Assembly: GCA_002698985.1 (NCBI GenBank)
Contig: PAAY01000026.1
Coordinates: forward strand, 1-58,249
Source: Saprospirales bacterium
Lineage (GTDB): Bacteria; Bacteroidota; Bacteroidia; Chitinophagales; Saprospiraceae
DNA length: 58,249 nt
Direction of reading: 5' to 3'
Under the pieces are notes generated by a model, which saw only the letters and a list, made by a program, of their open reading frames with translations, had not been told where the DNA came from and did not search any database. The position numbers were made by a program, and so were the translations under genes. This document shows, in pieces, positions 32,055-34,001 of the stretch; position 1 is the stretch's first letter, and each line of letters opens with the position of its first letter.

Positions 32055-32129
32055 GGCCCCATAGTTCAAGGGATAGAATAGAGGTTTCCTAAACCTTAGA
32101 TCCAGGTTCGAGTCCTGGTGGGGCCACCA
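32055..32129 (+). tRNA. tRNA-Arg(CCT), CCA encoded
   Basis: A full cloverleaf can be drawn. The acceptor GGCCCCA pairs with TGGGGCC; the anticodon stem GAGGT pairs with ACCTT around the loop TTCCTAA, giving anticodon CCT, which reads AGG; the T arm is CCAGG TTCGAGT CCTGG. The discriminator is A, and CCA is encoded. This is the only intact copy; three broken copies of the same gene follow in the next 600 bases. Arg(CCT) genes are frequent integration targets for mobile elements. Confidence 0.96.
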
Positions 32130-32135
32130 CAAAAG

Positions 32136-32177
32136 CCTGTCTACCGACTAGGTAGGCCTGCCTCGTCGGCAGACAGG
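32136..32177. repeat. Two adjacent 21-base palindromes after the tRNA
   Basis: Two 21-base palindromic units lie head to tail: 32136-32156 (CCTGTCTACC...GGTAGG) and 32157-32177 (CCTGCCTCGTCGGCAGACAG plus G). The second is directly joined to GAATAGAGG of a broken tRNA copy. The first, preceded by AAAAG, may derive from the tRNA terminator. Confidence 0.8.
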
Positions 32178-32208
32178 GAATAGAGGTTTCCTAAACCTTA
32201 GATCCAGG
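32178..32208 (+). pseudogene. Broken tRNA-Arg copy 2 (anticodon arm to T stem)
   Basis: GAATAGAGGTTTCCTAAACC and the following TTAGATCCAGG match the intact tRNA exactly. The copy begins at the junction with a 21-base palindrome in the D-arm region and stops inside the T stem, where the leader of the GIY-YIG gene begins. It cannot fold as a tRNA. Confidence 0.88.
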
Positions 32209-32227
32209 GTGTATGCTATGATGACCA

Positions 32228-32530
32228 ATGAGTGAACAACAACCATATACCGTTTATGCACTCGAAAGCGAGAGTAGTGGTATGCTCTATATTGGATTTA
32301 CCGAGGATGTTACTCGACGTTTACGAGAACACAATGCTGGTAAGTCTAAGTTCACCAAAGGCTACCGACCCTGGAAACTGGTTTACACTGAAGTGGTCTT
32401 CGGCCGCAAAGAGGCCAGAAACAGAGAGAAATTTCTCAAAACCAGTTCCGGTAAAAAGTGGCTGAAGGAAATATTGAAAGACGGCCCCATAGTTCAAGGG
32501 ATACCTGCCTCGTCGGCAGACAGGGAATAG
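32228..32530 (+). CDS. GIY-YIG nuclease-domain protein lodged between tRNA-Arg copies
   Basis: This 100-residue protein is a minimal GIY-YIG endonuclease domain: TVYAL and YIGFT give the two signature strands, the catalytic Arg lies in VTRRLREHN, and the metal-binding Glu is in NREKFLK. Such single-domain proteins resemble the UvrC N-terminus and homing nucleases. Its last 17 residues (DGPIVQG and beyond) are translated from the 5' half of broken tRNA copy 3, and the TAG stop is the tRNA's own GAATAG. A 21-base palindrome inserted in that tRNA half adds exactly seven codons in frame. The gene is thus sandwiched between halves of tRNA-Arg copies. Whether it cuts tRNA-Arg DNA is inference. Confidence 0.85.
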   Translation: MSEQQPYTVYALESESSGMLYIGFTEDVTRRLREHNAGKSKFTKGYRPWKLVYTEVVFGRKEARNREKFLKTSSGKKWLKEILKDGPIVQGIPASSADRE

Positions 32531-32596
32531 AGGTTTCCTAAACCTTAGATCCAGGTTCGCTGTCTGCCGACAAGGCAGGGAGTCCTGGTGGGGCCA
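32483..32596 (+). pseudogene. Broken tRNA-Arg copy 3 with two palindrome insertions
   Basis: All parts of the tRNA are present in order, but 21-base palindromes interrupt it at 32504-32524 (D-arm, before GAATAG) and 32559-32579 (T loop, before GAGTCC). Removing both restores the intact tRNA sequence apart from the loss of the encoded CCA end. The first insertion also lies within the GIY-YIG reading frame. It should not yield a tRNA. Confidence 0.88.
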
Positions 32597-32604
32597 CTAT
32601 AAAA

Positions 32605-32632
32605 GCCTGTCTGCGGTTTGTAGGCAGGCTTT
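32605..32632 (+). terminator. Terminator-like hairpin after tRNA copy 3
   Basis: AAAGCCTGTCTGC and GTAGGCAGGCTTT form a stem of about 11 pairs with one or two mismatches, followed by TTGT. A similar start, AAAAGCCTGTCTACC, follows the intact tRNA, so this may be the ancestral tRNA terminator, from which the 21-base palindromes may have arisen. Confidence 0.5.
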
Positions 32633-32642
32633 GTAATTGGTT

Positions 32643-32731
32643 AGGTTTCCTAAACCTTAGATCCAGGTTCCCTGTCTGCCGACAAGGCAGGCCTGTTTGC
32701 CTCCAGGCAGGGAGTCCTGGCAGGGCCACCA
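32643..32731 (+). pseudogene. Broken tRNA-Arg copy 4 with a 41-base palindrome insertion
   Basis: The copy lacks the acceptor 5' strand and the D arm. From AGGTTTCCTAAACCTTAGAT it continues to the T loop, where 41 bases (32671-32711, two palindromes in tandem) are inserted at the same point as in copy 3, before GAGTCC. The 3' acceptor strand has changed to CAGGGCC but the CCA is kept. Confidence 0.85.
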
Positions 32732-32809: not shown

Positions 32810-33820
32810 TTAATTTGTTTGGATTTTTAGGCCAGCCCTTTGCAGCTGATCAGCAAAAATCCCGTTTGGTTTAAGTAGCCCTGCCACCGACAACGTCTGT
32901 CTGGACGGGCTTGCCAATCCTGCGAGAAATTTGTCGACCAAAAGCTGGAGTTCTTTGAAATCGTTAGCAAAAGAATGATTGTGGATCAAGTCCTTTTTAA
33001 GCCAACGCCAGATCTTTTCCACTGGATTGAGCCATGAGGCGTAGGTCGGCAATGGTACCAGTTGTACAGGGAGGTTTAGATGCCTGTATTTTCCAGATGG
33101 TCTTATGCTCGCCCAGCTTCTTGGCAATTGGAATGGATACGGGCACTGCTGTGGTTGTAGGGCTTCAATAACTTCGGGATGGAAATGAACCGGCCAGTTG
33201 TCCAACAAGAGGTAAATAGTCTTGCCAGGGTACTGCTCAACCAATTTGCATAGGAACCCTACATATGTAGGTATACTGATCCGGTTGCGCTGCATACTGG
33301 AAAACTCTCCTGTAAGAAGATTCAGGGCTCCTATCACCCTCCATTTTCGCTCTCCACCGATAGCCAGTCCCGCCCTTGGCTGTTTCCGCAGGGGAGCGTG
33401 GTCCGGAGCAGGCGATGCATGGTTGTAATAGGTTAGTTCGTCTTGAGCAAGGACAACGTCTCGTCCTTCTCTATGGCTGGCTATGACTTTTTGCAAGTAC
33501 GCCAGCTTGGTCTCATAGTCGGTGTCTGGACTGTGAACATAGCTCCGGGCTCGCTGATAACTGATACCTAGTCGCTTGAGTGCCTTCTTGAAAGCGCCAC
33601 GCCCTTTCACAGGGATGATCTTGTTACAGACGCAACGTAGCAAGTCGAGCGTCCAACGACTCCTGTCTGGGTATAGCTCAGCACGTCGACCTATCAGTTG
33701 TTCGAGCTTGAGCTTTGCCTCTTCGCTGTTCAGAGGGAAAAAAAGCCGGCCGGCGGCCGCTGCCCGGTCGTCTTTCCAGGCTCTTGATCCCACCCTCTTT
33801 GAATCGATGAACCCAAACAC
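32810..33820 (-). CDS. IS630 transposase, DDE catalytic frame
   Basis: This frame encodes the DDE domain: the first Asp in VLAQDELTYY, the second in LLLDNWPVHFHPE, and the Glu in YASWLNPVEKIWRWLKKD. The first roughly 25 residues are out-of-frame reading; true protein is probably made by fusion with the upstream helix-turn-helix frame through a +1 shift at the T7 run at 33738-33744 (minus strand CTTTTTTTCCC). The fused product would be about 395 residues. The catalytic triad is complete, so the element may still move. Confidence 0.88.
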   Translation of the reverse strand: MFGFIDSKRVGSRAWKDDRAAAAGRLFFPLNSEEAKLKLEQLIGRRAELYPDRSRWTLDLLRCVCNKIIPVKGRGAFKKALKRLGISYQRARSYVHSPDTDYETKLAYLQKVIASHREGRDVVLAQDELTYYNHASPAPDHAPLRKQPRAGLAIGGERKWRVIGALNLLTGEFSSMQRNRISIPTYVGFLCKLVEQYPGKTIYLLLDNWPVHFHPEVIEALQPQQCPYPFQLPRSWASIRPSGKYRHLNLPVQLVPLPTYASWLNPVEKIWRWLKKDLIHNHSFANDFKELQLLVDKFLAGLASPSRQTLSVAGLLKPNGIFADQLQRAGLKIQTN

Positions 33821-34001
33821 TTACTGTCCGGGGTTGACGCTTTTTATAAAGAAGGGCTGCGACTTCCTTAATCTGAAGACCTTCTGCAACCTTCAACAAC
33901 GCAAAGGCTCTTTCTCTGACGTAGGCTTTTGAATGTGTACGCATCATCTTGTCCAAAGACAATCGTTCTTCTGCCGTGATTTCAAGTGTCAATCGACGCA
34001 T
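33678..34001 (-). CDS. IS630 transposase, N-terminal helix-turn-helix frame
   Basis: This 107-residue frame holds a helix-turn-helix for terminal-repeat binding: EGLQIKEVAALLYKKRQPRTVSVW followed by VHRFKEGGIKSL (split here for length). Homology to the family ends at the GRRPAFFP point, where reading must pass to the DDE frame; the remaining residues (SEQRRGKAQARTTDRSTC) are probably the unshifted product. The overlap of 143 bases with the DDE frame and the T7/C3 slip site fit programmed +1 frameshifting or transcript slippage. Confidence 0.82.
   Translation of the reverse strand: MRRLTLEITAEERLSLDKMMRTHSKAYVRERAFALLKVAEGLQIKEVAALLYKKRQPRTVSVWVHRFKEGGIKSLERRPGSGRRPAFFPSEQRRGKAQARTTDRSTC

What the first reader, a model, noticed from the sequence alone, without database searches (positions are those of the whole stretch)
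32055..32731. tRNA-Arg(CCT) array with an embedded GIY-YIG nuclease and palindromes inserted inside the tRNA copies
One intact tRNA-Arg(CCT) is followed by three broken copies. A single-domain GIY-YIG gene sits between copy 2, which stops in the T stem, and copy 3, which begins at the tRNA 5' end. The last 17 codons and the TAG stop of the nuclease gene come from copy 3. Copy 3 carries 21-base palindromes in the D arm and T loop; copy 4 carries 41 bases (two palindromes) at the same T-loop point. The D-arm insertion equals seven codons and keeps the nuclease frame open. The whole suggests a small mobile unit that uses tRNA-Arg as target, as flank and as source of its own stop codon, with palindromes as a second layer of insertion. 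GIY-YIG homing nucleases and tRNA genes as integration sites are both established; this combination I infer to be new.
Basis: partly seen in the sequence, partly recalled or inferred. Interest (0 to 1): 0.88.

Follow-up and report, generated by a model that had tools for sequence, protein, structure and literature searches.

The report
Tiny nuclease gene nested in tRNAs
A very small DNA-cutting-enzyme gene sits between a working tRNA gene and broken copies of that same tRNA, and the same arrangement turns up beside many different tRNAs in several bacterial phyla, which points to a miniature selfish element that homes into tRNA genes.

Summary
The window holds one intact tRNA-Arg(CCT), three damaged copies, a single-domain GIY-YIG ORF ending inside copy 3, and 21-bp imperfect palindromes in D and T loops. 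Of 103 related short GIY-YIG ORFs not near contig ends, 64 lie within 300 bp of an intact tRNA (control windows 3 of 2,656; nearby tRNAs 84 same strand, 1 opposite). In a similarity-ranked second set 69 of 80 do, 13 of 17 among those from other phyla. Typically a fragment of the SAME tRNA lies on the ORF's other side. Sister genomes show the site empty. Protein clades track tRNA isotype (35 changes; shuffles 65-76), not genome. Fragments often carry palindromes at recurrent points, 18 of 104 insertions being one identical 20-mer, in several phyla. Best reading: a minimal, isotype-tracking homing element flanked by copies of its target tRNA. It works like phage SegB (PMC13096335), but relation to SegB is undetectable by BLASTP and cleavage is untested. 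The palindromes are dispersed repeats; why they collect at these points is unresolved.

The parts
32055..32129 (+). intact tRNA-Arg(CCT), copy 1
   Evidence: ARAGORN; same isotype at the occupied and empty sites of the genus
32136..32156 (.). palindrome-family copy with 1 mismatch, between copy 1 and copy 2
   Evidence: pattern scan; with the next palindrome folds as a 44-nt hairpin, z -4.0
32157..32177 (.). 21-bp imperfect palindrome at the D-loop point of copy 2
32178..32208 (+). copy 2: tRNA nt 22-52, ends in the T stem
32228..32530 (+). single-domain GIY-YIG nuclease ORF, 100 aa; last 15 codons and TAG lie in tRNA copy 3 (7 of those codons are the palindrome)
   Evidence: PF01541 E 3.1e-16; 8 invariant residues in 23 aligned sequences
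32483..32503 (+). copy 3, tRNA nt 1-21
32504..32524 (.). 21-bp palindrome in the D loop of copy 3 (TA|GA)
32525..32558 (+). copy 3, tRNA nt 22-55
32559..32579 (.). 21-bp palindrome (1 mismatch to the family pattern) in the T loop of copy 3 (TC|GA)
32580..32599 (+). copy 3, tRNA nt 56-75 (last two bases diverged)
32602..32632 (+). terminator-like hairpin after copy 3
   Evidence: direct reading of the sequence
32643..32670 (+). copy 4, tRNA nt 28-55
32671..32711 (.). 41 bp, two palindromes, in the T loop of copy 4
32712..32731 (+). copy 4, tRNA nt 56-75

Best explanation
A minimal homing-type mobile element aimed at tRNA genes. The element is one small GIY-YIG nuclease ORF lying between copies of its own target tRNA. 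SHOWN: the architecture (intact tRNA on one side, fragment of the same tRNA on the other, same strand), its recurrence across tRNA isotypes and phyla, empty versus occupied sites in sister genomes, tandem repetition of the unit, and protein clades that track isotype and geometry. INFERRED: the nuclease cuts an element-free tRNA gene of its isotype near the end of the D loop (nt 21/22) or in the T loop (nt 55/56). Recombination repair from a resident tRNA-ORF-tRNA array, with the two tRNA copies as homology arms, copies the ORF in and leaves one complete tRNA. The redundant copy then decays, keeping its outer arm. A palindromic dispersed repeat comes to sit at the presumed cut point of the redundant copy and would block re-cutting there. 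Exchange between the tRNA copies makes and removes tandem units.
For: Association: 64 of 103 short GIY-YIG ORFs at least 300 bp from the ends of the stretch held (73 of all 132) have an intact tRNA within 300 bp, against 3 of 2,656 control windows; nearby tRNAs 84 same strand, 1 opposite; 0 of 3 long GIY-YIG proteins. In the window's own genome the UvrC-sized and two other GIY-YIG genes have no tRNA in the stretch held. In 80 loci from named genomes 69 have it, 75 tRNAs all on the ORF's strand, including 13 of 17 loci titled Omnitrophota, Patescibacteria groups, Ignavibacteria or delta-proteobacterium. Geometry: of 127 loci with an intact tRNA on exactly one side, 61 have it after the ORF and 66 before it; a copy of the same tRNA is found on the other side in 55 of 61 and 53 of 66 (BLAST E up to 0.05). 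Where the fragment has an insertion, its outer end is complete in 47 of 50 and 34 of 36, while the inner end is ragged. Empty sites: G009 versus G010 and G008 versus G012 share flanking DNA; the empty genome has one tRNA. Tandem units: three ORFs in G003. Tree: isotype 35 changes against a minimum of 65 in 1,000 shuffles, geometry 16 against 29, genome 48 against a shuffled range of 46-51. Active-site Arg and Glu are invariant in 23 sequences. Analogue: purified SegB cuts inside tRNA genes with preferred motif RAWTSGAAC (PMC13096335, section 9); its reverse complement GTTCSAWTY reads like the T-arm box (my inference), and 3 of its 5 matches in the T4 segB region lie near the 3' ends of tRNA-Thr, tRNA-Gly and stable RNA rnaC.
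Against: No cleavage or movement is shown. The complete tRNA copy is uninterrupted, and what protects it is not explained. 39 of 103 untruncated short ORFs have no intact tRNA within 300 bp; the share with a tRNA is 18 of 25, 16 of 20 and 10 of 12 in the three upper score bins but 14 of 26 and 6 of 20 in the two lowest. BLASTP of the window protein against T4 SegB gives E 3.8, so common descent with SegB is not supported. Two of five D-arm-plus-20-mer loci found in 198 genomes lack any GIY-YIG in the stretch held. The Rhizobium phage relative that I opened has no annotated tRNA nearby; the other 16 phage records were not opened. G008 also has about 0.6 kb between its fragment and the shared downstream DNA that G012 lacks, which I did not explain. 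The tree rests on 75 columns and 57 of 117 inner branches are open. Fourteen loci without an ARAGORN tRNA gave no Rfam tRNA match.
Confidence: 0.75

Rival explanations
1. A host gene, not a selfish element: the small nuclease is co-transcribed with a tRNA and acts on tRNA or its precursor (processing, quality control, or a tRNA-directed toxin). The duplicated fragments would be by-products of tandem duplication.
For: Nearly always the same strand as the tRNA (84 to 1; 75 to 0), and the ORF often overlaps the tRNA start (14 of 20), which fits co-transcription.
Against: Patchy presence (57 of 100 genomes), empty sites in the same genus, many isotypes, tandem copies, mixing of phyla within isotype clades. 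The nearest solved relatives by profile are UPF0213 proteins and the DNA structure-specific nuclease SLX1.
Confidence: 0.12
2. Two unrelated processes: the ORF and duplicated tRNA arose by duplication or homing, and dispersed palindromes of the REP/SDR kind, perhaps moved by a Y1 transposase, merely accumulate in tRNA copies that no longer matter.
For: The palindromes occur elsewhere (3 to 49 exact copies of the 21-bp family in 7 genomes; the 20-mer in 18 of 198 genomes). Of 39 such sites read (33 distinct flanks), 2 are tRNA D-arm fragments and neither of these has GIY-YIG in the stretch held. Y1_Tnp is found in 7 of 7 genomes tested.
Against: In tRNA fragments the sites are sharply focused: the exact 20-mer is flanked TA|GA in 15 of 18 cases but in none of the 37 non-tRNA sites read. 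D loop in 39 of 57 labelled insertions of one geometry, T loop in 27 of 44 of the other. The 18 cases may share descent, and several of the 37 sites are copies of one larger repeat, so this is not a clean independent test.
Confidence: 0.4
3. A remnant of a larger integrative element or prophage that used the tRNA as attachment site, of which only the nuclease gene is left.
For: tRNA genes are common attachment sites (general knowledge); four viral contigs carry relatives, one of them beside tRNA-Arg(ACG).
Against: Tandem units are short (ORF starts 471 and 543 bp apart in G003, 393 bp in G009), and none of six neighbouring proteins of the window that I scanned is an integrase. Fragments occur on the 5' side as well as the 3' side of the tRNA, unlike the usual 3'-end attachment duplication (general knowledge).
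Confidence: 0.04
4. Assembly artefact of repeated tRNA sequence.
For: 29 of 132 short ORFs lie within 300 bp of the end of the stretch held, and the window genome is a 102-contig draft.
Against: The same architecture is in long contigs, among them Thermoflavifilum thermophilum DSM 14807 (2.85-Mb contig), Winogradskyella aurantia, Psychroserpens, Maribacter and Leeuwenhoekiella.
Confidence: 0.01

Closest known systems
SegB of phages T4 and T6, free-standing GIY-YIG homing endonuclease (PMC13096335: sections 9 and 10 and other passages read; Brok-Volchanskaya 2008: not held, recalled)
   Same: GIY-YIG nuclease gene directly between tRNA genes on one strand (T4: tRNA-Ile, segB, tRNA-Arg); SegB cuts within tRNA genes; tandem amplification of a segB-tRNA unit; microhomology between the tRNA 5' end and the segB 3' end (PMC13096335).
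   Different: SegB is 221 aa and in phage genomes; its T4 flanking tRNAs are two different tRNAs, not copies of one. Here mostly 80-115 aa, chromosomal, flanked by copies of the same tRNA, clades tracking isotype, palindromes in the fragments; BLASTP to T4 SegB E 3.8.
Slx1 / UPF0213 single-domain GIY-YIG proteins
   Same: Closest solved relatives by profile (1zg2 E 3.4e-14, 1ywl 2.8e-13, SLX1 7wme 2.1e-6); the UPF0213 chains are of similar length.
   Different: PMC1564403 (passages read) discusses Slx1-like prokaryotic proteins beside methyltransferases and a TrmH-like fusion; the passages shown do not mention location inside tRNA gene arrays.
Small dispersed palindromic repeats (REP/REPIN, PMC3116915, passages read; Nostoc SDRs, Rickettsia palindromic elements, mitochondrial double-hairpin elements, recalled)
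   Same: About 20-bp hairpins scattered in the genome; one appears to sit in an ORF as 7 codons (C46:31633, by eye), as Rickettsia elements do (recalled).
   Different: Here one identical 20-mer recurs in tRNA fragments beside GIY-YIG genes in several phyla at similar tRNA positions.
Group I introns with homing endonucleases in tRNA genes (PMC3984707, seen in search listing only)
   Same: Endonuclease gene associated with tRNA genes.
   Different: The window's tRNA is uninterrupted and duplicated, not spliced. One related locus (L245) has both, in the same tRNA-Thr.

Membership tests
GIY-YIG nuclease superfamily | GIY-YIG catalytic domain above the curated cut-off | tested here: met
   PF01541 59.9 bits against cut-off 22.6
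GIY-YIG nuclease superfamily | conserved catalytic Arg and Glu | tested here: met
   R31 and E67 invariant in 23 sequences; their catalytic role is from knowledge of the family
Free-standing homing endonuclease (SegB-like mode) | nuclease gene present or absent at an otherwise shared site | tested here: met
   G009 versus G010 and G008 versus G012
Free-standing homing endonuclease (SegB-like mode) | cuts the allele that lacks the gene and is copied in by recombination | not testable with these tools
   needs enzyme and cross experiments
Free-standing homing endonuclease (SegB-like mode) | located at or near its target locus | tested here: inconclusive
   located between tRNA copies, but the target is inferred, not shown
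SegB protein family | sequence homology to SegB beyond the shared motif | tested here: not met
   BLASTP E 3.8 against T4 SegB; no PHROG match for the window protein; no profile comparison with SegB was run
Group I intron-encoded endonuclease | lies within a group I intron | tested here: inconclusive
   the window's tRNA is intact and uninterrupted; the RNA family search covered 14 relative loci, with an intron only in L245; the window itself was not scanned with Rfam
Dispersed palindromic repeat (REP/SDR kind) | about 20-bp palindrome in many unrelated places of the genome | tested here: met
   3 to 49 exact copies per genome in 7 genomes, reversed control 0; contexts
REP mobilised by a RAYT | moved by an associated Y1 transposase | tested here: inconclusive
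   Y1_Tnp matches over the cut-off in 7 of 7 genomes; linkage to the palindromes not examined
tRNA-site integrative element | integrase with direct-repeat attachment sites | tested here: inconclusive
   no integrase among the six neighbouring proteins scanned; the rest of the window and the relatives' neighbours were not scanned

The most novel reading that the evidence does not exclude
A two-part parasite of tRNA genes: an about 85-residue GIY-YIG nuclease cuts conserved tRNA-gene points shared by most tRNAs (end of the D loop TA|GA, or T loop TC|GA), and a 20-bp palindrome occupies that point in the redundant tRNA copy, marking the host-element junction and making it uncuttable, while the element restores one complete tRNA. 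The pair has spread with isotype specificity through Bacteroidota, Omnitrophota, Patescibacteria and others.
Probability: 0.3. Interest if true: 0.9.

Novelty: new variant of a known kind. Interest (0 to 1): 0.8.

Why it matters
If right, it would be a very small homing element living on bacterial chromosomes and would explain many small GIY-YIG genes of unknown role there. tRNA genes are ideal targets: essential, conserved and present everywhere, so an element that restores the tRNA can cross phyla. Clades that track isotype give a ready set for learning how a domain with no added DNA-binding part chooses its target. It also makes testable why identical palindromes collect at two points of dead tRNA copies.

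Tried and rejected
A first palindrome pattern was one base too long and returned only unrelated sites; corrected.

Idea that the palindrome inserts only into hairpin loops: suggested by three sites in the window genome but not borne out by most sites of the 20-mer read elsewhere, so dropped as a general rule.

Idea that the 20-mer is exclusive to GIY-YIG loci: rejected. One search counts 60 copies in 18 of 198 genomes (my sum of its rows). Of 39 sites read, none of the 18 loci encodes a GIY-YIG relative in the stretch held; the 20 short stretches (about 0.4 kb) were too short to judge.

Descent from SegB: not supported.

Searching decayed tRNAs with Rfam in 14 loci without an ARAGORN tRNA gave no tRNA hits, although one of them (L245) holds an intron-bearing tRNA-Thr found with ARAGORN's intron option, and L072 (window genome C99) shows by eye two tRNA-Met-like pieces with palindromes in the T loop.

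Rows dropped: one search lists 136 places (recounted); one (G049) was not fetched, so 135 were analysed, and 3 long proteins were set apart. One search reports more than 80 relatives and keeps the best 80, so that set is similarity-ranked, not random; two of its loci with no phylum in the title (L245, L260) were counted with Bacteroidota. In some searches six of the 84 loci were left out as repeats of places already held, and loci with an intact tRNA on both sides or on neither were not classed. Two of the 58 'copy found' cases (L219, L222) rest on 9- and 7-nt matches and should be discounted. The tree left out sequences with stops or under 60 aa (120 used).

Full report
WHAT IS THERE. The window has one intact tRNA-Arg(CCT), 32055-32129, followed by three partial copies, a 100-aa ORF at 32228-32530 with a GIY-YIG domain (PF01541 E 3.1e-16), and 21-bp imperfect palindromes at the D-loop point (tRNA nt 21/22) and T-loop point (nt 55/56) of the copies. 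The ORF's last 15 codons and its TAG lie in copy 3. The 21-bp family occurs 7 times exactly in the 4.83-Mb genome, 3 of them in this array, with 0 for the reversed control.

IT IS A RECURRENT ARRANGEMENT. I searched 100 genomes (the window's own and relatives) with the protein; 57 had a match, 136 places in all. I held DNA around 135 of them. Among 132 ORFs of up to 160 aa, 73 have an intact tRNA within 300 bp; of the 103 at least 300 bp from either end of the stretch held, 64 do. Random windows at least 3 kb away in the same stretches: 3 of 2,656. Nearby tRNAs are on the ORF's strand 84 times and on the other strand once; none of 3 long GIY-YIG proteins has a tRNA nearby. The share falls with similarity: 18 of 25, 16 of 20 and 10 of 12 in the three upper score bins, 14 of 26 and 6 of 20 in the two lowest, so the rule belongs to a subfamily. 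In the window's own genome three other GIY-YIG genes have no tRNA in the stretch held. A second, similarity-ranked sample of 80 loci from titled genome records gave 69 with a tRNA within 300 bp, all 75 tRNAs on the ORF's strand. Of 17 loci titled outside Bacteroidota, 13 have it: Omnitrophota, Levybacteria, Uhrbacteria, Yanofskybacteria, Saccharibacteria, other Patescibacteria, Ignavibacteria and a delta-proteobacterium. tRNAs of Arg, Glu, Asp, Leu, Met(CAT), Ser, Pro, Val, Ala, Lys, Asn, Phe and Gln are involved.

TWO MIRROR GEOMETRIES. Of 127 loci with an intact tRNA on exactly one side, 61 have it after the ORF and 66 before. On the other side there is a piece of the same tRNA in 55 of 61 and 53 of 66 (BLAST E up to 0.05). 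Typically, when the intact tRNA is downstream, the upstream piece keeps the tRNA's 5' end; when it is upstream, the downstream piece keeps the 3' end. In pieces that carry an insertion of 10 bp or more, the outer end is complete in 47 of 50 and 34 of 36, while the inner end is ragged (reaches the far tRNA end in 1 of 50; starts within 3 nt of the tRNA start in 4 of 36). The ORF stop lies inside the downstream tRNA in 14 of 20 cases scored.

EMPTY SITES AND TANDEM UNITS. A search for tRNA-Arg(CCT) in 14 genomes of the genus hit 13. By the flanks printed and the matches, G000, G003, G008, G009 and G011 carry the ORF at this tRNA; G001, G002, G005, G006, G007, G010, G012 and G013 show a tRNA without it in the flank printed. 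G009 and G010 share upstream DNA up to about 150 bp before the tRNA; G010 then has one tRNA, G009 has a damaged copy, ORF, damaged copy, ORF, and an intact copy matching G010 at 97.7% over 87 bp. G008 and G012 share both sides, with the ORF and a damaged tRNA-plus-terminator copy extra in G008, plus about 0.6 kb further on that I did not explain. G003 has three ORFs in tandem, one with an in-frame stop.

PROTEIN FAMILY AND TREE. Eight residues are invariant in 23 aligned sequences, among them Y21, G23, R31 and E67. The nearest solved relatives by profile are UPF0213 proteins and SLX1. On a FastTree tree of 120 proteins, isotype needs 35 changes (1,000 shuffles: 65-76), geometry 16 (29-49), anticodon 48 (81-95), whereas genome of origin is unstructured (48 against 46-51). 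Isotype groups mix phyla, for example Leu with Omnitrophota, Saccharibacteria, Patescibacteria and Bacteroidota. With 75 columns the tree is weak in detail, and shuffles do not allow for shared descent.

THE PALINDROMES. Of 99 insertions tested, 62 are more self-complementary than all but 5 or fewer of 100 shuffles; the two of the window's copy 3 are not, being imperfect. Labelled sites are D loop in 39 of 57 when the piece is upstream and T loop in 27 of 44 when downstream. The same exact 20-mer accounts for 18 of 104 insertions, in Bacteroidota, Omnitrophota and several Patescibacteria. Its flanks are TA|GA in 15 of 18 tRNA cases and in none of 37 non-tRNA sites read (several of those are copies of one larger repeat). 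But it is not exclusive: it occurs in 18 of 198 genomes of the order, and of 39 sites read only 2 are tRNA fragments. Five D-arm-plus-20-mer loci were found in 198 genomes (up to 3 mismatches); all five have an intact tRNA nearby, three have the GIY-YIG ORF, two do not. So the palindrome is a dispersed repeat in its own right that is focused at two tRNA points near this nuclease; the focus could reflect the nuclease, shared descent, or tolerance of dead copies.

HOW IT PROBABLY WORKS. Best reading: a homing-type element. Cutting of an element-free tRNA gene and repair from a tRNA-ORF-tRNA template would yield this structure, leave one complete tRNA, and explain isotype tracking, patchy presence and tandem units. 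The steps of cutting and copying are inferred. The palindrome as a block on re-cutting is a weaker inference; the intact copy's protection is unexplained.

AGAINST KNOWN SYSTEMS. The closest is SegB, a free-standing GIY-YIG endonuclease lying among phage tRNA genes (T4: tRNA-Ile, segB, tRNA-Arg). In T6 it cuts within tRNA genes, prefers RAWTSGAAC and drives tandem amplification of a segB-tRNA unit (PMC13096335, sections 9 and 10 read, other passages). The reverse complement of that motif reads as the T-arm box; that is my inference, helped by 3 of 5 matches in the T4 region lying about 15 nt from the 3' ends of two tRNAs and one stable RNA. SegB and the window protein are not detectably related by BLASTP, so it works like SegB but is not filed as SegB. 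The T4 review PMC2988022 (passages) lists SegB's insertion site as tRNA-Arg/tRNA-Ile. Ten paper searches (listings seen) and passages of PMC1564403, PMC12455944 and PMC10448857 did not show a description of chromosomal GIY-YIG genes between copies of one tRNA; the library holds only open-licence papers.

Noticed in passing
L245, 2370-3180: A tRNA-Thr(TGT) carries a group I intron (RF00028, E 9.3e-15) and the same gene is preceded by the GIY-YIG ORF and a 5' tRNA fragment holding the exact 20-mer in its D loop: two kinds of tRNA parasite at one gene.
   Followed up: partly
window genome C99:31591-31815 (L072): A second GIY-YIG ORF near a contig end, flanked on both sides by tRNA-Met(CAT)-like pieces whose T loop holds another palindrome (read by eye, no ARAGORN tRNA).
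   Followed up: partly
L019, L020, L021 (window genome C67, C70, C73): The 21-bp palindrome sits in the loop of another dispersed hairpin repeat; hairpins without it can be read in the same loci (by eye).
   Followed up: partly
L027 (window genome C46:31633-31653): A palindrome copy (1 mismatch) appears to add seven codons to a protein-coding frame, as Rickettsia palindromic elements do (reading by eye, comparison recalled).
   Followed up: no
window 32810-34001: Transposase in two overlapping ORFs (DDE_3 and helix-turn-helix parts, IS630-like by recall) directly after the array.
   Followed up: no
L313 (G088) and L317 (G243): tRNA 5' fragment with D-loop 20-mer followed by an intact copy of the same tRNA but no GIY-YIG ORF in the stretch held: possible relics.
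   Followed up: partly
L314 (G129): Damaged tRNA-Arg(ACG) with D-loop palindrome, then the intact tRNA, then the GIY-YIG ORF: both tRNA copies on one side.
   Followed up: no
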